The translations under genes and the position numbers were made by a program. A DNA stretch of 33,528 bases from a virus, in the IMG/VR virus record IMGVR_UViG_3300036832_000509, positions 1 through 33,528 of that record; one strand, written 5' to 3'. Positions within the stretch are counted from its first letter, which is position 1, and each line of letters starts with the position of its first letter. Shown here in pieces: positions 189 to 12,753 of this stretch. The notes under the pieces are model-generated. The model saw only the letters and a program-made list of their open reading frames with translations, was not told the origin of the DNA and ran no database searches.

Positions 189-857
189 TTATTGCATGTG
201 CGCTTGGTTCTGGCTTGCACTACTTAACGTGTCGACGCTTTCAATACGAAGATTGAGTATGCGAAAGCGCCCATATTGACCACCAGACTTGATTGGTCGC
301 CAGCGCCCAATACCAAAGCGACCAGCTTGCTCCAGTGCTTCTTCGAAGATTGCAACGCCGCGTTTCGATTGGTTCAGCACTATCTCGTCGAAGACCATAA
401 ACTCGACAGTGCCTTTCCACGCTGGAAACTTCGGGAATTTCTTTGGCACTCCGCGCCCACCTGGACGACCGCGTGGGTCTACTGAAATCCACTCGCCCTC
501 AATTTCTTTACCTTGCATACCGATAAGCACATTTGAATCAACCATGACGCCAGTGCGAAACGCATCGAGATAAGTTTTCTTGCCGCGCCCCGGAATGGTT
601 TCGCCAGTGCTCTTGACCGACTCCAGCAAGACGCGATGAAAGATCATGCCTGGTATGATCACGTTGCCAACTCGCGCGAGCGACTTGTCTGGCAGCTCGA
701 CGATGCTTGAGTCATCAGTGTGACAGCGCAGCCGCCAGCATCGATTCTCGTACTGACTCATTGACTCGTTGCTTTCGCGTGGAAAATTCAAATCAACTTG
801 TTGTGACTGCGAATAAGTGACGATGCTTTCCAGCTCTGCAAAAACTTTGGTTGCCAT
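189..857 (-). CDS. Phage protein of unknown function with GxGRWRP/YGRF motif
   Basis: The 222-aa protein starts at ATG 857, preceded by a strong GGGAGGG ribosome binding site. There is no signal peptide or membrane segment. A Gly/Arg/Pro-rich turn occupies residues 129-142. The C-terminal third carries GRFGIGRWRP (179-188) and YGRFRI (195-200), an aromatic and glycine signature that I have seen in uncharacterised phage proteins near replication genes, though I cannot name the family. It is the first gene after the 684-bp repeat array (878-1561), whose outermost repeat ends about 20 bases ahead of the ribosome binding site. Any promoter within the array would drive it. Confidence 0.75.
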   Translation of the reverse strand: MATKVFAELESIVTYSQSQQVDLNFPRESNESMSQYENRCWRLRCHTDDSSIVELPDKSLARVGNVIIPGMIFHRVLLESVKSTGETIPGRGKKTYLDAFRTGVMVDSNVLIGMQGKEIEGEWISVDPRGRPGGRGVPKKFPKFPAWKGTVEFMVFDEIVLNQSKRGVAIFEEALEQAGRFGIGRWRPIKSGGQYGRFRILNLRIESVDTLSSASQNQAHMQ

Positions 858-877
858 TGTTGTCGGTCCCTCCCGTT

Positions 878-1561
878 TGGTCTACTTGAGACGTTGCGTT
901 GTGTTGCTTAGCGTCGCGCAGCGGTGACCAGAGCCGCAAAGCTGCGACGTGCGCTGCTGGGCGTCGCTCTGCGATGCGAAGCGTGGCGAGGCTGTGCGCG
1001 GAGTAGCGCTGAGCGAAAACTTTTCTTCGAGACGTTGCGTTGAGTTGAGTGGCGTCGACTTGCACCGACATGCGACGCGGGGCATCGCCAGGCATGGCGT
1101 CGCGACGCTGCGCGCCGCAGAGCGGTTGCGAAAACTTTTCTTTGAGACGTTGCGTTGAGTTGAGTCGCGGAGCCAAGCGGGGCTACGCGCAGCTTGCGAA
1201 AGATTTTGGTTGTTTCGAGACGTTGCAATGCGCAGACAAGCGGCGACTGGAGTCGCTGCGCGGCGCGAAGCGAGGCATCGCGCGGCGTGGCGTAGCGTCG
1301 ATAAACCTTTTCTGTCGAGACGTTGCGTTGAGTTGCTTCGCGGGGCTTCGAGCAGACTCGCCTTGCGAGGCACGGAGCGGCCCGGAACCGCGGGGCGTTG
1401 CGCCGCGAAACTTTTCTTGCGAGACGTTGCGTTGCGTTGATGCGCAGGGCGCTGCGCTGCGACAATGCGCGCTGCCGGGAGCTGCGCCGCGTGGCTCAGC
1501 GCCGCTTTGCGTCGCGATGACGCGCGGGGAAACGTTGCGTTGAGTTGCGGCAAGTAGACCA
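878..1561. repeat. Non-coding array of 7 GAGACGTTGCGTTG-type repeats bounded by an inverted repeat
   Basis: Copies of GAGACGTTGCGTTGAGTTG (plus-strand sense) start at 888, 1029, 1144, 1217 (diverged), 1317, 1421 and 1529 (GAAACG). Most are preceded by a GAAAACTTTTC palindrome, as at 1015-1025 and 1130-1140, with shorter forms at 1303 and 1407. Spacings are 141, 115, 73, 100, 104 and 108 bp, and the GC-rich spacers are built from AGCG/GCGTCGC words and differ from one another. TGGTCTACTTG (878-888) and CAAGTAGACCA (1551-1561) are exact reverse complements at the two ends. Repeat spacing is not a multiple of three, so the long open frames here are not coding. An eighth copy is at 5029. Role unknown. 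Confidence 0.85.
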
Positions 1562-1638
1562 GCGAAGCAGTGCGTCGCTTTGCGCTGCTTAGCGCCGACG
1601 AGCGTAGAGTGGCGAAGCGATGCATCGCGCCTAGTTTC
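1562..1638. other. GC-rich non-coding tail of the repeat array with a 12-bp palindrome
   Basis: This is continuing AGCG/GCGAAGC-type low-complexity sequence like the array spacers. GCGATGCATCGC at 1617-1628 is a perfect palindrome just downstream of the winged-helix gene's stop. It could form a hairpin but has no T-run, so it is not an obvious intrinsic terminator. Confidence 0.5.
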
Positions 1639-2130
1639 TTAACCCGCTTTGCGCTGGAATAGCTGCAAAACTTTTAGCGGGTTCAGTTTGAAATCATTGA
1701 CGATAGGCGGCGTAAAACTGCGCTTGCGATAAAGCGATTCGAGCGCGTTCATCATTTCGTGCTTGACCACGCTTTTCGTTTTGAGCGCAGCCTTTTCAGC
1801 AGTGGCGTTAATGATCGCTTCCCAATCGCGCTGCAAGCGACGACGCTGGCGCGTCAGCGACTCTTCACGACGCGACGTGCAGTCGACTGCGCCGTCACCG
1901 TCGACGCGCAGCACGCCCTGTTTGTGCTCGATTCTGGTATAGACGTGACGTTGCCAGAGCTGGCGACGCGCAGTGCGCAAGTACGGACGCATCTGCTCGA
2001 CGTCTTGAAAGCCAGTCAAGTCGAGCAGCTGGCGATAAGTGATCAGCTCAGTGATGCTGGCGCGCTCTAAACGCTCGATAATCTCTTGTGTCTCGGTACT
2101 TAACTCGAATGACGGTCGTTTGGCGATCAC
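1639..2130 (-). CDS. Winged-helix-like phage protein
   Basis: The 163-aa protein starts at GTG 2130, eight bases after a GGAGG site. ATG 2135 would open a different frame. Residues about 20-80 (ITELITYRQLLDLTGF, then a helix with ARRQL and a short beta hairpin ending GVLRV) resemble a winged-helix DNA-binding fold of the kind found in small phage regulators. The second half is a basic helix-rich region (RQRRRLQRDW). No enzyme motif is visible. It overlaps the upstream small gene by 83 bases, so translational coupling is likely. A regulatory or replication-accessory role is inferred from position only. Confidence 0.7.
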   Translation of the reverse strand: MIAKRPSFELSTETQEIIERLERASITELITYRQLLDLTGFQDVEQMRPYLRTARRQLWQRHVYTRIEHKQGVLRVDGDGAVDCTSRREESLTRQRRRLQRDWEAIINATAEKAALKTKSVVKHEMMNALESLYRKRSFTPPIVNDFKLNPLKVLQLFQRKAG

Positions 2131-3580: not shown

Positions 3581-3928
3581 CTAATCGACTGAGCGAATCC
3601 CGCGTTTGAGTCGGGCCAAAATCTCCTGAAAGCGCTCGAGGTTTCGCTCGCGCTCTGCTGCGCTTTGCTGGTACTCGACCTTTGGCCGACGCTCGCGCTC
3701 GACGCTCAGTCGTTGCTCGCGAATGGCTGACGCTTCGCGATATAGCTCTGCGCATGAGGGTCGAGCCATGCCAGCTTGGATGCGCTCACGAATGGCTTGC
3801 AGAGTTTCTTCAGCGTCGAGCTGCGCCAGCTCTTCATGCCAAGCTTTGAAGATCAGCGGGTCAATGTACTGGTCTTGCCAGAGCGCTTTGATGCGCATCA
3901 AAATTTGCGTAGTAGCTTTTATATCCAT
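3581..3928 (-). CDS. Helicase-loader-like replication protein
   Basis: A 115-aa helical protein whose ATG (3928) overlaps the last 10 bases of the initiator gene. The first 65 residues (ILMRIKALWQDQYIDP, then FKAWHEELAQLDAEETLQAI, then RPSCAELYREA) follow the pattern of the small SPP1 G39P-type helicase loaders: helix, an acidic W-H-x-L segment, then a P-x-x-x-E-L turn. The rest is a charged coiled coil (REQRLSVERERRPK). Loading of a host or phage DnaB-type helicase at the origin is inferred from this resemblance and from coupling to the initiator. No ATPase motif is present, as expected for that family. Confidence 0.6.
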   Translation of the reverse strand: MDIKATTQILMRIKALWQDQYIDPLIFKAWHEELAQLDAEETLQAIRERIQAGMARPSCAELYREASAIREQRLSVERERRPKVEYQQSAAERERNLERFQEILARLKRGIRSVD

Positions 3929-4749
3929 CCGGAATCTCCGGCTGCTTGCTTGGCCGCGCGCTCTTTAGTTTCCAATTCGCTCAAGAGTTTCATGCCGTCG
4001 CGTATGCCAGGCGCGAAAGTGTATTGCTCCGGAATTTTATAGTTGGCAAACAGATTGTCACTCGACGTTGCTGGCACTTGGCGTCGATTGGCTGGATTGC
4101 CAAAGCGCTCGAAGTTGCCAATGCGCATCCGCCACGCTGCTTCCCAGTTGCAATAACGCGATTGGTGCGCTTGGCAGTAGTCGCGCCACGCTGCGAATTC
4201 GCGTTCAGCGTCGACGCCGTGGCGCTCTGCGTATTCAACCATGCTGGCTGTCAGCTGTAGATCCGCCGGCCAAGTCTGCGCTTTGGCTGCTGGCTGGCGT
4301 CTGACACTTGGCTGAAGCCGTTCGTGCACCAGTGATGGATCAGATTCTTTGACGGTTTTCTTTCTGATGGATCGATCTATAGAAGCAGCGTCACGAGTGG
4401 CACATGGCTGCGTGTCGCGAGTGGCACATGGCGGCGGAACGGGCAGTGACACATTGTCACATGGCGCAGACAGAGTATCGCTGTTGTACAACACGCGATA
4501 ACTGTTACGCAGAAAGCGCCCACATAGCTCGCGATTGCGCTGACGCTTGATCATGCCTCTGGCTTCGAGTCGCTGGAGGACGCGAATCACTGTGCGCCGT
4601 GACATCTCGTACTGCTTGGCCAACGTGCTTTGTGACGGCCAGCAGTCGCCGTCTGGATTGGCGCAGTTGCACAGCGCCAACAAAATCGATTTGGCGTGAG
4701 TGGTGCCAGCTGTCTGCTCTAGTCCCCAGTTATATGCTGCAAAGCTCAT
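3919..4749 (-). CDS. Phage replication initiator, lambda-O-like
   Basis: The 276-aa protein starts with a winged-helix domain (residues about 18-75, with CWPSQSTLAKQYEMSRRTVIRV as the recognition region), the fold used by phage replication proteins of the O/Helix-turn-helix_36 type. A low-complexity linker follows (about 90-160), containing the protein repeat PCATRD twice. The C-terminal domain (about 170-220: MVEYAERHGVDAEREFAAWRDYCQ, then NWEAAWRMRIGNFERFG) resembles the DnaT/DnaD-like tail found in many such proteins. The linker DNA holds CACATGG repeats (4394-4465). It binds the origin and hands over to the loader encoded next. Confidence 0.8.
   Translation of the reverse strand: MSFAAYNWGLEQTAGTTHAKSILLALCNCANPDGDCWPSQSTLAKQYEMSRRTVIRVLQRLEARGMIKRQRNRELCGRFLRNSYRVLYNSDTLSAPCDNVSLPVPPPCATRDTQPCATRDAASIDRSIRKKTVKESDPSLVHERLQPSVRRQPAAKAQTWPADLQLTASMVEYAERHGVDAEREFAAWRDYCQAHQSRYCNWEAAWRMRIGNFERFGNPANRRQVPATSSDNLFANYKIPEQYTFAPGIRDGMKLLSELETKERAAKQAAGDSGWI
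4394..4465. other. Candidate replication origin: CACATGG iterons inside the initiator gene
   Basis: CGAGTGGCACATGGC occurs twice, 24 bp apart (4394-4408 and 4418-4432). A third CACATGG is at 4458-4464, next to the inverted repeat GTGACA-cat-TGTCAC (4446-4460). A fourth (TGTCACATGG) lies outside the gene at 5014-5023. They fall in the part encoding the linker between the two domains of the initiator, just as lambda iterons lie within gene O. That this is the origin is inferred. Confidence 0.45.
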
Positions 4750-4757
4750 GATGGCGC

Positions 4758-4976
4758 TCAGTGCATCAACTGCTCGCGTTCAACTGCGTCGAGCTGCGCC
4801 AGCATCTCGTCGAAGCTCGCTTCAAACTCAGAGCGCGAGATGCCCCAGGCTTCGCCAATATGGGCGAAGCGATCAGCAATTTCGCTCTTGCTGTGGCCGC
4901 ACATGCTGAGACTCGCGCCAAAGAATGCGCCTTGCAGAAAGCGCAGTCGCTCCTGTCGCGTCACGCAGTCAATCAT
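4758..4976 (-). CDS. Small hypothetical protein ahead of the replication genes
   Basis: A 72-aa helical protein starting at ATG 4976 with GGGGAGG about 10 bases upstream. It contains GAFFGASLSMCGHSKSEIADRFAHIGEAWGISRSEFEASFDEML, which reads as a compact helical protein, with one stretch resembling a degenerate helix-turn-helix. It sits 8 bases from the initiator gene and shares its direction, so they are probably co-transcribed. No family recognised. Confidence 0.65.
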   Translation of the reverse strand: MIDCVTRQERLRFLQGAFFGASLSMCGHSKSEIADRFAHIGEAWGISRSEFEASFDEMLAQLDAVEREQLMH

Positions 4977-5134
4977 CTGGTCTGTTACCTCCCCAACCAG
5001 TTGCTATGCTTAATGTCACATGGTCTTCGAGACGTTGCGTTGCATTGCCGAGCGGGGCACAGACGTGAGCCGCAGAGCGATGACTAGCGCAGAGCCGCGC
5101 AGCGGTGAACAGCGCAGCGATGAGCTGACATGGT
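4977..5134. repeat. Eighth copy of the GAGACGTTGCGTTG repeat with its GC-rich spacer
   Basis: GAGACGTTGCGTTG starts at 5029, preceded by TGGTCTTC, which recalls the TGGTCTACTT of the array's left end. It is followed by about 90 bp of AGCG-rich sequence like the array spacers. A CACATGG (5017-5023) abuts it. Nothing coding is seen in this gap. Confidence 0.75.
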
Positions 5135-5609: not shown

Positions 5610-5740
5610 ACTGGTAGCACCAACGTAGCTAACTATAGCAGTTTTGAGTGCCGACGCTGTTTTGTTCGGGCGCGAATTAACTAATGAATACGCACGTTTA
5701 CGTTGTTTCGTGTTGATTCGCGCCTGAACAGGAAGTGGCT

Positions 5741-5802
5741 CTTGAGAACTTAAAATTCTCTGAAGCGCAAGCTTCGTGCGGGTTCGACTCCCGCTCCCGG
5801 CA
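5741..5802 (+). other. 3' fragment of tRNA-Leu(UAA), putative att core
   Basis: Anticodon stem GAGAA/TTCTC (5744-5748 and 5756-5760) encloses the loop CTTAAAA, so the anticodon is TAA. A long variable arm GAAGC-GCAA-GCTTC (5762-5775) marks a class II tRNA. The T arm is GCGGG-TTCGACT-CCCGC (5778-5794), and the 3' acceptor strand TCCCGGC is at 5795-5801, then A. The matching 5' acceptor strand and D arm are absent upstream. This is therefore not a working gene but the tRNA tail that tyrosine-recombinase phages carry to restore the target on integration. Confidence 0.85.
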
Positions 5803-5861: not shown

Positions 5862-7043
5862 TCAGCGACGCTCCAAATCATGCTTTGGTAGCATACTGGT
5901 AGCACCAAGCTGTCCTTGGGAGCAAGCGAAATCCTCTAGATGCTGATTTTGGCGCAGCAGCGCTGCTGCGTCGCGCTTGTGCACTTCGTCGAGCTGGTCA
6001 GCGAAATCGTCAATATCGTCGCGATTCGGCTGCTGGTACTTCTGGTGCTGAGTCACTGACTTATGGCCGATCAGCTGCATCGCGACTTTCTCATTCGTAT
6101 GGCGCACGCGCGTGGAATTGCTCGACGCGCTGCGTCGAAAGTCGTGAATGTAAGAACCAGCCAGCCCGACTGACGCCACGACTTTGCGCCAGAGTGGATA
6201 TGGAAACCAGCGTATGCGCGTGCCGTCGTCCCGACAGAATATCCACGCAATCTTGATCTCGCGCTCGTGCTCGATGCGCGTGACGAAAGCGCGTTGCTCG
6301 CGCAGCGTCTCTGTCAGCCAGCTGTCGGGGCGCAGCGGCCAGAAGCGTGGATCATTGGTCTTGCAGCTCGCTGCGTCGAGCCACAGTCGAGCGTTGTAAA
6401 CGTCAATATCCGGCCACTGACGCGACAGCAGCTCTTCGAGACGCCAGCCAGTGATGTAATAGCAGACAACCAGTCGACGCAGATACTCTGGCAGCGCCAC
6501 TAGCACGCGCTCTAAGTCAGCGCGACTGTAGCTTTGCTGACGCGCATTGTTCAGCTGGATTCGCTCGAAGTGCGGCAGCGGCACGCCAGAGAGCACCATC
6601 GCAAAGCGCAGCGCAGCCAGCTCCAGCTTGACTGTCGCCAGCGAATACTTGCGCTTGGTCTTAGGCGAGACTTGGCTGAGTCGCAGCGTGCGATAACTCC
6701 TGAGCCTGGCACCAAACTGCGACGCGCGCAGTCCGCGAAAGAACGGTTCCAAATGGTTGTAACGTATGTCGAGCATGCGAATGCTGCGCCGGTCGTTGTT
6801 GCGATAGAAGTCGCGCAGCCGGTCATACATCTCTTCAAACTTCGGATCATAGCCCGCTGACCCTTGCGCCATGCGCGCTTGATGCTCGCCGATCAGCTTT
6901 TCCAGAATCTTTTCTGCAGCTGGCTTGTTGAGTTTGCCAGTCGCTCGCGTGACGCGCTTACGCTTCAGCTGGTACGTCGCATAGTACTGCCCCTGTTTCT
7001 TCTTCTGATAGACACAGCCAATCGAGCCATGCGTGCGTCCCAT
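5862..7043 (-). CDS. int: Tyrosine recombinase (phage integrase)
   Basis: The 393-aa protein has the full catalytic set of the family: R201 (TGWRLEEL), K228 (beta-hairpin, SCKTND), H300 and R303 (YIHDFRRS), H327 (IGHKS) and nucleophile Y336 (HQKYQQP). An N-terminal segment (1-40, GSIGCVYQKKKQGQYYATYQLKRKR) fits an arm-binding domain, and residues about 70-160 fit a SAM-like core-binding domain. Its start ATG overlaps the stop of the 46-aa basic gene (TGATG). The last ~15 codons overlap the right attP arm, and the target is the adjacent tRNA-Leu(UAA) tail. Site-specific integration and, with an excisionase, excision. Confidence 0.95.
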   Translation of the reverse strand: MGRTHGSIGCVYQKKKQGQYYATYQLKRKRVTRATGKLNKPAAEKILEKLIGEHQARMAQGSAGYDPKFEEMYDRLRDFYRNNDRRSIRMLDIRYNHLEPFFRGLRASQFGARLRSYRTLRLSQVSPKTKRKYSLATVKLELAALRFAMVLSGVPLPHFERIQLNNARQQSYSRADLERVLVALPEYLRRLVVCYYITGWRLEELLSRQWPDIDVYNARLWLDAASCKTNDPRFWPLRPDSWLTETLREQRAFVTRIEHEREIKIAWIFCRDDGTRIRWFPYPLWRKVVASVGLAGSYIHDFRRSASSNSTRVRHTNEKVAMQLIGHKSVTQHQKYQQPNRDDIDDFADQLDEVHKRDAAALLRQNQHLEDFACSQGQLGATSMLPKHDLERR

Positions 7044-8478: not shown

Positions 8479-8717
8479 TTTTTGCCCTTCTCATTCGACT
8501 TACTATTGGACTGCTGCGCAGCAGTTAGCTGGTCGCGCAGTTGCGCCAGTTGCTTTTGCAGCTCGACGATGGTCGCCGCAGCAGCCTGGCGTTCAGCTTT
8601 GCAGCCAACTTCTTGCAGCTGGCTCTCGATAGATGGCGTCGCCACTGGCGTCGATTGTTGTTGCGCATAGACGCCAGTCGCGACAGCCAAGATTAGTATG
8701 ATTATTAGTTTTCTCAT
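8475..8717 (-). CDS. Small exported coiled-coil protein
   Basis: Start chosen at ATG 8717 because it overlaps the fibre stop as ATGA and begins a signal peptide (MRKLIIILILAVATGVYA, cleavage before Q). Longer upstream starts would place charged residues ahead of it. The mature 62 residues are mostly coiled coil (ERQAAAATIVELQKQLAQLRDQLTAAQQ) with a basic tail. Size and layout recall a spanin-type or fibre-accessory periplasmic protein, but there is no lipobox. Confidence 0.65.
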   Translation of the reverse strand: MRKLIIILILAVATGVYAQQQSTPVATPSIESQLQEVGCKAERQAAAATIVELQKQLAQLRDQLTAAQQSNSKSNEKGKK

Positions 8718-11700
8718 GGCGCCCCTGTCGAAAAACAGTGATAAGTCACGTTTATGGTCCCTGTGCAGGCAGCACCAGTGGAAGGTTGGACGCAAACAAA
8801 CTGGATCGAACTAGTGCTCTGATTTGCAACGTACCACAGCGCCGCCTGGCCGGCGCCATTGACGTTGCACATAACGTTGTTGGAAAAGGCATGTGAAAAC
8901 GTCAGAGTAACCGGCGTCGTGACGCCGCCGATATACCCCCAACCGTCGCAACCATTCAGCGCTCCTGAAGAAGCGGTCGGGACGCCACCCGTACACCCGA
9001 TATGACCGCTATTCTGGAAATTAAATCCGGTTGGATTAACCGAGCCTTGTACGGTCGGAGAATAAGAACTTCCGGCAGTCAGGCCGCTATTACCGTAGAA
9101 AGCTACTGTATTACCAGACGTTACAATAATACTGGCAGTAGCCGCCGTCGCTGTCCAAGCACCATTCCAATATGCCCCGTCTACCATATCGATATTACCG
9201 CCATTCGCGGTTAGCGCGCCGACTGGAGAAGTCTTTGAGCCGAAATATACGGCACTGTTCGTCGTATCAGTTAGTGTGATACTGCCACCCCACGAAGTAT
9301 TACCCGATCCGTCAGTTACTAGAGGACTACCGTTTGCTCCGGCCGTAGCCGGCAGAACCAAATCGCCTCCGGGAGTGACATCCGGGACGCGAATGGCCTC
9401 GTAGCCGCTGGTCTTGCCATACAGTACGAGCCGGCCGGAAGTCGTCGCCCCGTTAACGCTGATCTGCAACCCACCGCTGTTAATACTAACTTCGTTATCA
9501 TAAGCATTAGTCTGGATATTAAACGGCGTAAGAGTGTTGAACATATTTTTGATAACAATTTGGGCGAGTGCGCCACTGGCCCCGATGGTTTCTTGTAGAG
9601 CCCAATGACGGATGCCCGAGGCATTGGAAAGAAACACCGAGTCTTGTGTATTAGTCGAGTCCCGAAGGTCGAGTATGCCAGAGCTGTCGCTTATCGTTCC
9701 GGTGACGTTAAGAATAGCCCCGGTGAAAGCCGGATTGTTTATCGCAGCGTAGTTGTTCTGCCCGCCAACTACGTTGGTTTGCACTGCAAATGGCCCTGCT
9801 TGACCAGAGACTTTGGCGACTGTGATCACCCCAGTACTATTTATAGTCGCGTCGCCAGACATCGTCGCAGGTGCATAAGCGCTGGCAGATGTTGCGATTA
9901 ATAGTTGCCCAGCAGTGGGCGCAGTAGTATTGCCAGTGCCGCCATTACTGATCGCGAGTGGCGTCGCCGCAGTCGCCAGCGTACCAAACGCAGCGCCATT
10001 CGTCTTAGTGCAAGTAATTGCTCCAGTCGACGACAATAGACAGTCGCCAGACATAGTGACCGGCGGGACACTGGTAGCTGACGCTGCGACGCGAAATTGC
10101 CCAGCGCTCGGCGCAGTGCTCGTGCCCTCGCCGCCGTTCGCCACAGAGAGTGGAATGCTGGCAGTCGCCAGCGCGCTGAAACTGGTCCCGCCCGTCTTGG
10201 TTACTGCGATGCTGTAAGAGTTAGCTCCAGCTCGCGTCAAAGTCGCATCGCCGGAAAGCGTCTCAGCTTCAGCTGTATTGACTGCTGAGAAACCACCAAA
10301 CTGCGGCGGCGAGCCGCTTGGATAGCTGTTCCCTCCTGCGGGCGGCGACGCGCAAGTCGCTGCGCCAGCCGCGGAAATCGTCTGCACGAATTGACCGCCC
10401 GTGCAGCCGCCACCCGACAACGCGAGATTTAAGTTGCCAGTCGCAGACGCCAGTCCGCTGCCCACGTTGAGCGCATAGAGCGCGCCCGGACTGACATTGT
10501 TGAGTTTGGTCACAGTGATCACGCCAGCACTGGTCAGCGTCGCGTCGCCGCTCATCGTCACTGGCGTAAACGCCGTGGCAGAACTGGCGACCTCAAGTTG
10601 GCCGATGCTCGGCGCAGTCGTCGAACCACTTCCGCCGTTGGCAATCGAGACTGGCGTCGCCAGCGCGATAGTCCCGCCACTCGTCGTGATAGTCCCGCCC
10701 GTCAAGCCAGTGCCAGCAACGATGCTGGTCAGCCCGCCGCTCAGCGCCACGCCATTGATTTTGTAAGTCGCGCCAGTTGGCAGATTGATGCCAGTCGAGT
10801 CGAGCGTACCAACCAGCGTCGGGCCGAAGCTGACGCCAGCAGTCAAACTGGCATTCTGAAAGAAGTTGAAACCATTAGTGGTCAGCCGCAAAATCTCAGC
10901 TGACGTGGCGTCAGCGATAAACGCTGAGCCATTGTAATGCGCGCCGCCAGATAGATCCGCTGCGCCAGCAACAGTCGACTCGACTGCACCCCACGGTTGC
11001 GTCGACGAGCCAAGATACATGACCGGCAAAAACGAGCCGCCATTGAGCGTCAGCGTGGGGCCACTGCTCGCAGTCGTCAGCACTGGCATATTGATCGGGG
11101 CGTAGTTGTTCTGCCCACCGGCTGGATTGGTTGCCGGTGCGCCAGCGCTCGGCGTCGCGCAAGTCGCTATGCCAGCGCCAGTGATGCTCGACACGAAATT
11201 GCCAGGCGTACAGCCGCCACCAGTGATATTAAGATTCAGATTGCCGGTGCTCGAAACCAAGCCAGTACCCACGTTGAGCGTCGCCAGCGCGCCGAACGCT
11301 GTCCCGCTAGTCTTGCTCACTGTCACGACGCCAGCGTTAGTGACGCTCGCGTCACCCGACAGAGTTTGTGGCGCGTAGCTGGTCGCTGACTGCGCGATTG
11401 GCAGCTGTCCAGCGCTCGGCGCTGTGCTCGTCCCATTGCCGCCATTGGCGACACTCACTGGCACTGTCGCTGTCGCCAGCGCAGTAAACGCAGTGCCATT
11501 GGTTTTGCTGCACGTAATCGCACCAGCGCTGGTTATCGTGCAATCGCCAGAGAGCGTGACTGGTGCAAACGCGCTGGCTGATTGCGCGACGTCGAGCTGC
11601 CCCGCTGTCGGCGCTGTGCTCGCGCCGCGCCCACCATTCGCGATGCTCAACGGCAAACTGGCTGTTGCCAGCGCAGTAAACGCACTGCCATTCGTCTTGA

Positions 11701-12733
11701 GGACAGTCACGACGCCAGTGCTCGTGACGCTCGCGTCACCCGACAGAGTTTGTGGCGCGTAGCTGGTCGCTGACTGCGCGATTGGCAGCTGTCCAGCGCT
11801 CGGCGCTGTGCTCGTGCCATTGCCTCCATTGGCGACACTCACTGGCACTGTCGCTGTCGCCAGCGTCGTAAACGCAGTGCCATTGGTCTTGCTGCACGTA
11901 ATCACACCAGCGCTGGTTATGCTGCAATCGCCAGAGAGCGTGACTGGCGCAAACGCGCTGGCTGACTGCGCGACCTCGAGCTGCCCCGCTGTCGGCGCTG
12001 TGCTCGCGCCGCGCCCGCCATTCGCAATGCTCAACGGAATGCTGGCTGTTGCGAGTGCAGTAAACGCAGAGCCATTGGTCTTGCTGACTGCAATCGCGTA
12101 TGAATTCGAGCCAGCACGGCTCAGCGTCGCGTCGCCCGAGAGCGTTTCAGCTTCAGACGTATTCAGCGCCGAGAAGCCAGCCAGCTGTGGCGGCGAACCG
12201 CCGGGAAAGCCAGTCCCACCACCCGGCGTCGCGCAAGTCGCAGCGCCACTGGCGTTGATCGCTTGCACGAACTGACCAGCAGTGCAGCCGCCACCCGACA
12301 GCGCGAGATTCAGATTGCCGAGACTGGCAGCCAGTCCGCTACCGACATTTAATGGAAACAATGCACCAGGCGTGACGCCATTCACGCTGCCGACTATCAG
12401 CGCGCCAGCGCTGCTCAGCGTGGCGTCGCCAGAGAGCGTGACTGGCTGAATCAGAGTCGACGACTGCGCGACAGCGATTTGTCCAGCGCTCGGCGCCAGC
12501 GTATTGCCAAGCCCGCCATTAGCTATCGCGACTGGCGTCGCCAGCCCGATGACGCCACTCGTGGTAATAGTCCCGCCAGTCAAGCCAGTGCTCGTCGTGA
12601 TGCTGGTCACGCTGCCGCCACCAGCGCCACTACCGCCGCTACCACCTGGTGGGCCAACTGTCTGCGCTCGCACTGGCAGTGCTCGCACGAGCAGCAGCGC
12701 GATCACGCTCGCGACTAACAGTCTCGCTTTCAT
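8714..12733 (-). CDS. Giant repetitive tail-fibre-like protein with Sec signal peptide
   Basis: 1339 aa from ATG 12733, preferred over TTG 12742 because GGCGGGGA lies about 9 bases upstream. Residues 1-24 (MKARLLVASVIALLLVRALPVRA) are a classical signal peptide, cleaved before Q. Most of the protein is a repeat of about 60-67 aa with the pattern ANGGxGTSTAPSAGQL, then ATSYAPQTLSGDASVTSxGVVTV, then KTNGxAFTALA, typical of beta-strand fibre repeats in phage tail proteins. A GSSTQPWGA / GGAHYNGSAF module appears twice. The tip (last ~90 residues) has six cysteines. A 384-bp tandem duplication spans 11340-12100, and the 3' part (about 8720-9780) differs in codon use. Receptor binding is likely, but the signal peptide is odd for a virion fibre. 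Confidence 0.8.
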   Translation of the reverse strand: MKARLLVASVIALLLVRALPVRAQTVGPPGGSGGSGAGGGSVTSITTSTGLTGGTITTSGVIGLATPVAIANGGLGNTLAPSAGQIAVAQSSTLIQPVTLSGDATLSSAGALIVGSVNGVTPGALFPLNVGSGLAASLGNLNLALSGGGCTAGQFVQAINASGAATCATPGGGTGFPGGSPPQLAGFSALNTSEAETLSGDATLSRAGSNSYAIAVSKTNGSAFTALATASIPLSIANGGRGASTAPTAGQLEVAQSASAFAPVTLSGDCSITSAGVITCSKTNGTAFTTLATATVPVSVANGGNGTSTAPSAGQLPIAQSATSYAPQTLSGDASVTSTGVVTVLKTNGSAFTALATASLPLSIANGGRGASTAPTAGQLDVAQSASAFAPVTLSGDCTITSAGAITCSKTNGTAFTALATATVPVSVANGGNGTSTAPSAGQLPIAQSATSYAPQTLSGDASVTNAGVVTVSKTSGTAFGALATLNVGTGLVSSTGNLNLNITGGGCTPGNFVSSITGAGIATCATPSAGAPATNPAGGQNNYAPINMPVLTTASSGPTLTLNGGSFLPVMYLGSSTQPWGAVESTVAGAADLSGGAHYNGSAFIADATSAEILRLTTNGFNFFQNASLTAGVSFGPTLVGTLDSTGINLPTGATYKINGVALSGGLTSIVAGTGLTGGTITTSGGTIALATPVSIANGGSGSTTAPSIGQLEVASSATAFTPVTMSGDATLTSAGVITVTKLNNVSPGALYALNVGSGLASATGNLNLALSGGGCTGGQFVQTISAAGAATCASPPAGGNSYPSGSPPQFGGFSAVNTAEAETLSGDATLTRAGANSYSIAVTKTGGTSFSALATASIPLSVANGGEGTSTAPSAGQFRVAASATSVPPVTMSGDCLLSSTGAITCTKTNGAAFGTLATAATPLAISNGGTGNTTAPTAGQLLIATSASAYAPATMSGDATINSTGVITVAKVSGQAGPFAVQTNVVGGQNNYAAINNPAFTGAILNVTGTISDSSGILDLRDSTNTQDSVFLSNASGIRHWALQETIGASGALAQIVIKNMFNTLTPFNIQTNAYDNEVSINSGGLQISVNGATTSGRLVLYGKTSGYEAIRVPDVTPGGDLVLPATAGANGSPLVTDGSGNTSWGGSITLTDTTNSAVYFGSKTSPVGALTANGGNIDMVDGAYWNGAWTATAATASIIVTSGNTVAFYGNSGLTAGSSYSPTVQGSVNPTGFNFQNSGHIGCTGGVPTASSGALNGCDGWGYIGGVTTPVTLTFSHAFSNNVMCNVNGAGQAALWYVANQSTSSIQFVCVQPSTGAACTGTINVTYHCFSTGAP
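11340..12107 (-). repeat. 384-bp tandem duplication inside the fibre gene
   Basis: The stretch starting GTGACGCTCGCGTCACCCGA at 11340 recurs at 11724 and stays nearly identical for several hundred bases, with only scattered single-base changes. The period of 384 bp is 128 codons, two protein repeat units, so the reading frame is kept. It marks recent growth of the fibre by unequal recombination or slippage. Confidence 0.85.
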
Positions 12734-12753
12734 CTGACTCAATCCCCGCCCCT

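What the first reader, a model, noticed from the sequence alone, without database searches (positions are those of the whole stretch)
878..1561. Bounded array of spaced repeats with unique GC-rich spacers
Seven copies of a GAGACGTTGCGTTG(AGTTG) unit, most led by the palindrome GAAAACTTTTC, alternate with different 50-120 bp AGCG-rich spacers. TGGTCTACTTG and CAAGTAGACCA close the ends exactly at the outer repeats. One more copy stands at 5029, next to the candidate origin repeats. The unit is too regular to be chance, and its spacing is not in codon phase. It could be a protein-binding array (partition, origin or packaging), a mobile repeat family, or a structured RNA. I know of no described phage element with this layout.
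Basis: seen in the sequence. Interest (0 to 1): 0.72.

Follow-up and report, generated by a model that had tools for sequence, protein, structure and literature searches.

The report
Phage VIPR guide-RNA array
The "spaced repeats with unique spacers" are most likely a set of guide-RNA genes built from 5-letter units, which together with the neighbouring CRISPR-like protein gene form a VIPR system; two of the guides read as addresses in the DNA-packaging gene of another phage, so this virus probably carries a programmable weapon against its rivals.

Summary
The repeats are real, but the "spacers" are the informative part. Each is an in-phase run of 5-nt units, NNNG[C/A] on the + strand: two positions fixed in 98-100%, two random (phase occupancy 0.99 against at most 0.54 in shuffles). 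GAGACGTTGCGTTG is the constant end of each run.

The adjacent gene (189-857, minus) has a Cas7/Csm3-like RAMP fold, and its family profile hits one PDB sequence, the SUSP1 Vipr protein. This is a VIPR system (PMC13142463): a RAMP protein plus guide RNAs in which only the NN pairs read the target, skipping one target base per unit.

Decoded that way, unit 1317 gave 13 IMG/VR hits, all in P27-type terminase small-subunit genes with the skipped base at the codon wobble. Unit 1421 independently matches the same gene in the best contig. Three other guides scanned gave no target.

The fixed triplet is CGC/NN on the gene strand (loosely kept in the window), not the published GGY/NN. Verdict: a new member, perhaps a new type, of a very recently described kind. 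Expression and silencing are inferred, not shown.

The parts
189..857 (-). vipr gene (RAMP / Cas7-Csm3-like guide-RNA-binding protein), 222 aa
   Evidence: Family profile hits PDB 36pp SUSP1 Vipr E 8.9e-9; AF2 pLDDT 90; Foldseek Csm3/Cas7 E 7e-8; VIA Z 11.9; phrog_4652, function unknown
858..887 (-). leader between array and vipr start codon, with ribosome-binding-site-like GGGAGG and the left arm of the 11-bp inverted repeat
   Evidence: sequence, ATG 30 nt from the array
888..1628 (-). vrRNA array, seven units of (K C N N c)n, each ending on the gene strand in GCAACGT(C/T)TC
888..1012 (-). guide unit 1 (25 pentamers)
1029..1123 (-). guide unit 2 (19 pentamers)
1144..1198 (-). guide unit 3 (11 pentamers)
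1217..1296 (-). guide unit 4 (16 pentamers)
   Evidence: seed scan gave one hit that does not extend
1317..1406 (-). guide unit 5 (18 pentamers); decodes to a terminase small-subunit (terS) site
1421..1525 (-). guide unit 6 (21 pentamers); decodes to the same terS gene, other strand
1639..2130 (-). candidate vap (accessory) gene, 163 aa, winged-helix-like N-terminal half
   Evidence: recurs beside the arrays in other contigs; AF2 pLDDT 81.5; weak wHTH matches
5029..5128 (-). solitary guide unit 8 (20 pentamers), upstream of gene 4758-4976

Best explanation
The region is the guide-RNA (vrRNA) array of a VIPR system in an uncultured temperate phage. Shown here: seven units plus one solitary unit consist of 5-nt repeats with two free positions and end in a constant cap; the neighbouring gene is a Vipr/RAMP homologue; two guides fit sites in one rival-phage gene under the published 1-nt-skip rule. 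Inferred from the published system: each unit is transcribed, probably from the gene strand, with the GCAACGCAACGTCTC part as 3' tail; Vipr subunits bind the fixed triplets, one per 5 nt; the free NN pairs base-pair with double-stranded DNA, skipping one base per step; binding silences the target, here the terminase small subunit (packaging) gene of a competing phage.
For: 5-nt periodicity far beyond shuffles; same arrays in dozens of IMG/VR contigs, recurrently beside the same two genes; Vipr profile and fold match; relatives of the protein in cultured phages sit beside published-type GGY/NN arrays; 13 of 13 seed hits of guide 1317 lie in terS with the skip base at wobble, six lineages, best 27 of 28 letters at skip 1 against 14-16 at other skips; guide 1421 hits the same gene independently, 0 of 3000 shuffles.
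Against: No transcript, binding or silencing data. The fixed triplet differs from GGY. Units have up to 25 pentamers, the published vrRNAs 9-16. Guides 1029, 1217 and 5029 gave no target in IMG/VR. No promoter or terminator signal was found around the array.
Confidence: 0.88

Rival explanations
1. The pentamer arrays are cis-acting leader elements: Vipr or another protein coats (GCNNC)n upstream of its own and nearby phage genes and controls them, without guiding to foreign DNA.
For: Arrays nearly always lie just upstream of a start codon on the gene strand, between successive genes.
Against: Random NN positions have no role in this reading, yet they decode to a rival's terS twice. In the published system arrays also flank vipr and are guides.
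Confidence: 0.06
2. It is VIPR, but the terS reading is a coincidence caused by a common, GC-rich, conserved phage motif; the true targets are elsewhere.
For: P27-type terS is common and the 9-pair seed is GC-rich; the exact target phage was not found (best 27 of 28 letters).
Against: The match continues beyond the seed (L082 9 of 10 further letters) and a second guide, not used to fetch L082, lands in the same gene.
Confidence: 0.1
3. A mobile, origin, partition or packaging repeat, or a decayed tandem repeat without function.
For: Repeated cap and low-complexity look; one copy near replication genes.
Against: The fixed positions are kept at 98-100% while the neighbouring ones are random, which decay would not give; arrays go with vipr, not with origins; no whole-unit copies elsewhere.
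Confidence: 0.02

Closest known systems
VIPR systems, type II of Escherichia phage SUSP1 and Pseudomonas fulva prophage (PMC13142463, bioRxiv 2026.04.26.720920)
   Same: Minimal locus of a RAMP gene plus an accessory DNA-binding-like gene; several pentanucleotide-repeat guides in long intergenic stretches; constant end; decoding by the 1-nt-skip rule to rival-phage genes with the skip base at wobble.
   Different: Fixed triplet CGC/NN on the gene strand (C loosely kept in the window) instead of GGY/NN; up to 25 pentamers per unit; tail sequence unrelated by eye; terminase gene as target.
Csm3/Cas7 backbone subunits of class 1 CRISPR-Cas
   Same: RAMP fold (VIA Z about 12), glycine-rich C-terminal motif, expected to line a guide RNA.
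   Different: Single small protein without other Cas proteins; 5-nt rather than 6-nt period; guide read discontinuously.
CRISPR array
   Same: Conserved element alternating with unique stretches beside a RAMP gene.
   Different: Only the cap is constant; the spacers vary in length, are themselves 5-nt periodic, and match targets at two of every three bases.

Membership tests
VIPR system | Vipr protein of the RAMP family | tested here: met
   Profile to SUSP1 Vipr E 8.9e-9; Csm3/Cas7 fold
VIPR system | Tandem pentanucleotide repeats with a fixed triplet and two hypervariable bases | tested here: met
   8 units
VIPR system | Fixed triplet GGY (or 'a related consensus') | tested here: inconclusive
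   GGY itself is not met: gene strand is c-[G/T]-C. The preprint allows a related consensus in fig. S17, which is not held
VIPR system | Constant tail at the 3' end of the repeat tract | tested here: inconclusive
   A constant GCAACGCAACGTCTC end exists in 6 of 8 units and nearly so in 2; that it is 3' depends on the transcribed strand
VIPR system | vap gene in the locus | tested here: inconclusive
   A recurrent winged-helix-like gene is adjacent; identity with a published vap not testable without the supplement
VIPR system | Target recognition by NN pairs with a 1-nt skip | tested here: met
   By sequence only, for two of five guides for which a match was looked for by scan or in L082: 1317 and 1421 to terS
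VIPR system | vrRNA expression, Vipr binding, transcriptional silencing | not testable with these tools
   needs experiments
CRISPR-Cas | Near-identical repeats between spacers of about equal length, with cas genes | tested here: not met
   Units of 50-125 nt with 5-nt periodic spacers; no Cas gene besides the RAMP-like one among the genes scanned
Rfam RNA family | Match to a curated RNA family | tested here: not met
   none at gathering threshold

The most novel reading that the evidence does not exclude
The window belongs to a VIPR lineage, widespread in IMG/VR, whose guide RNAs use a C-[G/U]-C/NN scaffold instead of GGY/NN, with only two strictly fixed bases per pentamer in the window, and which is not among the seven published types. 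It would show that the noncontiguous code works with different scaffolds, and it comes with a natural terminase target hit by two guides.
Probability: 0.3. Interest if true: 0.72.

Novelty: new member of a known kind. Interest (0 to 1): 0.6.

Why it matters
It identifies an unexplained phage repeat array as a programmable RNA-guided system, extends a months-old discovery to an uncultured lineage with a different repeat scaffold, and independently supports the 1-nt-skip code by finding two natural guides that converge on one packaging gene of another phage. It also gives a simple DNA signature, 5-nt periodic arrays before vipr, for finding further systems.

Tried and rejected
No Rfam family at gathering threshold. 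No DNA similarity to phage records by megablast or blastn. A scan of IMG/VR for close relatives of the window's Vipr found none. Matching all guides against the held loci found no targets beyond terS; a slight excess at skip 1 may be codon composition. Decoded peptides sent to PHROGs and tblastn were too short to score. Reading unit 5029 backwards suggested a YqaJ-type recombinase motif to me (from memory), but two scans gave only chance hits, so it is only a lead. Guide 1317 with up to 3 mismatches in 385 genomes of the class of one arbitrary genome: none. Promoter and terminator scan: nothing above chance. Hammerhead-interspersed arrays, reported for another VIPR type, were not seen. Generic paper searches failed before the PDB hit gave the name. 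Some cap-pattern hits in genomes and viral contigs (L009, L013, L014, L017-L020) carry no pentamer array and look like chance or unrelated sites.

Full report
What is there. The repeat GAGACGTTGCGTTG is present as described. The window is a 33.5-kb IMG/VR virus record with an integrase at 5862-7043 near a tRNA-Leu-like sequence at 5722-5802, a replication-initiation gene at 3919-4749 and a head-tail module. It is thus a temperate phage or prophage fragment. It has no near relative by megablast among 50,697 phage records (first 20 kb).

The spacers carry the signal. Read in fives from each repeat, every spacer has the form NNNG[C/A] on the + strand, i.e. [G/T]CNN(c) on the gene strand. Position 4 is G in 98%, position 5 is C or A in 100%, position 1 is G in 61%, and positions 2 and 3 are random (information 0.04 and 0.02 bit). 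Mean best-phase occupancy is 0.986 against 0.435 +/- 0.025 in 2000 shuffles, maximum 0.544.

Relatives. A scan of IMG/VR with part of the cap followed by GCG every five bases found 56 stretches, several with 2-4 copies. A pentamer model finds arrays of about 40-1000 bp in most of them. They mostly lie between the stop of one gene and the ribosome-binding site of the next, on the strand opposite to the genes when written as GNNGC, with the cap nearest to the start codon. Two gene families recur beside them: one of about 190 aa with an invariant glycine-rich C-terminal motif and one of about 165 aa. In the window these are 189-857 and 1639-2130, with the array between them. The assignment of 1639-2130 to the second family rests on 17-23% identity and position and is weaker than that of 189-857.

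The protein. A profile of the first family (23 members) hits one sequence in the PDB, 36pp 'SUSP1 Vipr protein', E 8.9e-9. The predicted structure of the window protein (pLDDT 90) matches Csm3/Cas7 subunits of CRISPR effector complexes best (Foldseek E 7e-8; VIA Z 11.9 over 168 residues, rmsd 3.9). The second family has a winged-helix-like N-terminal half, with weak E-values.

The known system. PMC13142463 reports VIPR systems: a mainly phage-encoded ancestral RAMP, a vap gene, and vrRNAs of alternating GGY/NN with a 3' tail. Only the NN pairs read the target, with one target base skipped per step, mostly at codon wobble positions; the complex silences genes of competing phages. The same protein family in phages LESphi2 and DSL-LC04 and on an Azospirillum plasmid sits next to canonical NNGGC/NNGGT arrays. 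In a tree, the 23 Viprs with CGC/NN arrays fall on one side of a branch (support 90/91) from the three GGY ones tested; the window is a long branch among them, so its exact place is unsure.

Decoding the window. The eight guides were decoded with the published rule. A 9-pair seed of unit 1317 gave 13 IMG/VR hits, all in the N-terminal GNPGRRRLN motif of P27-type terminase small subunits (named from my knowledge of that motif), all with the skipped base at the wobble, in six lineages. The best, L082, matches 27 of 28 letters; skips 0, 2 and 3 reach 14-16. Unit 1421, not used to fetch L082, matches the same gene (L082 8969-9478, minus) on the other strand over 11 pairs, 20 of 22 letters. Order-shuffled guides reach this 0 of 3000 times in that gene and once in 3000 in the whole 9.5-kb contig. 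Scans with units 1029, 1217 and 5029 gave hits that neither extend nor share a gene, which serves as a negative control for the method. Being in IMG/VR, L082 is a relative of the target rather than the proven target.

Mechanism. By homology, each unit is transcribed into a guide RNA, Vipr coats it with one subunit per pentamer, and the complex binds and silences matching DNA; the best-supported target here is the packaging gene terS of a rival phage. Expression, strand and silencing are inferred. The gene strand is favoured because the constant end is then a 3' tail, as in the published vrRNAs; and by eye six of eight unit ends can form a short UCU(N3-5)AGA hairpin (sequences), which is weak evidence. 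A guide on the other strand would have the same double-stranded target.

Novelty. The kind is known since April 2026. What differs is the scaffold (CGC/NN, degenerate in the window) and the unit length. The preprint mentions types with 'a related consensus' in a supplement that is not held, so I file this as a new member and keep 'new type' as the open, more novel reading.

Noticed in passing
L021-L076 (IMG/VR contigs): The CGC/NN pentamer arrays are widespread and sometimes precede several successive genes (e.g. six arrays in L040), including genes other than vipr and its neighbour.
   Followed up: partly
window 878-888 and 1551-1561: An 11-bp inverted repeat links the leader of vipr with the variable part of guide unit 7; possibly chance, possibly self-pairing.
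   Followed up: partly
window 5029-5128: Decoded on the reverse strand, the solitary guide reads like a YqaJ-type recombinase motif (D/E)G(H/Q)VP(D/E)(I/M)Y(H/Q)P(H/Q)V(H/Q)(H/Q)(I/M)L; no target found.
   Followed up: partly
L092 2380-2900 (OQ594955.1, Pseudomonas phage LESphi2): NNGGC pentamer arrays, apparently three, upstream of a gene annotated 'hypothetical protein' that resembles Vipr; the record annotates nothing there.
   Followed up: partly
L093 2480-2830 (OR003939.1, Phage DSL-LC04): NNGGT/NNGGC pentamer arrays upstream of a Vipr-like gene annotated as a helix-turn-helix regulator.
   Followed up: partly
window 8714-12742 (repeats at 11310-12086): A 1342-aa open reading frame, probably a tail-fibre-like protein, holds four copies of a 192-nt repeat.
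   Followed up: no
window 5722-5802: tRNA-Leu-like sequence near the integrase gene, a likely attachment site.
   Followed up: no
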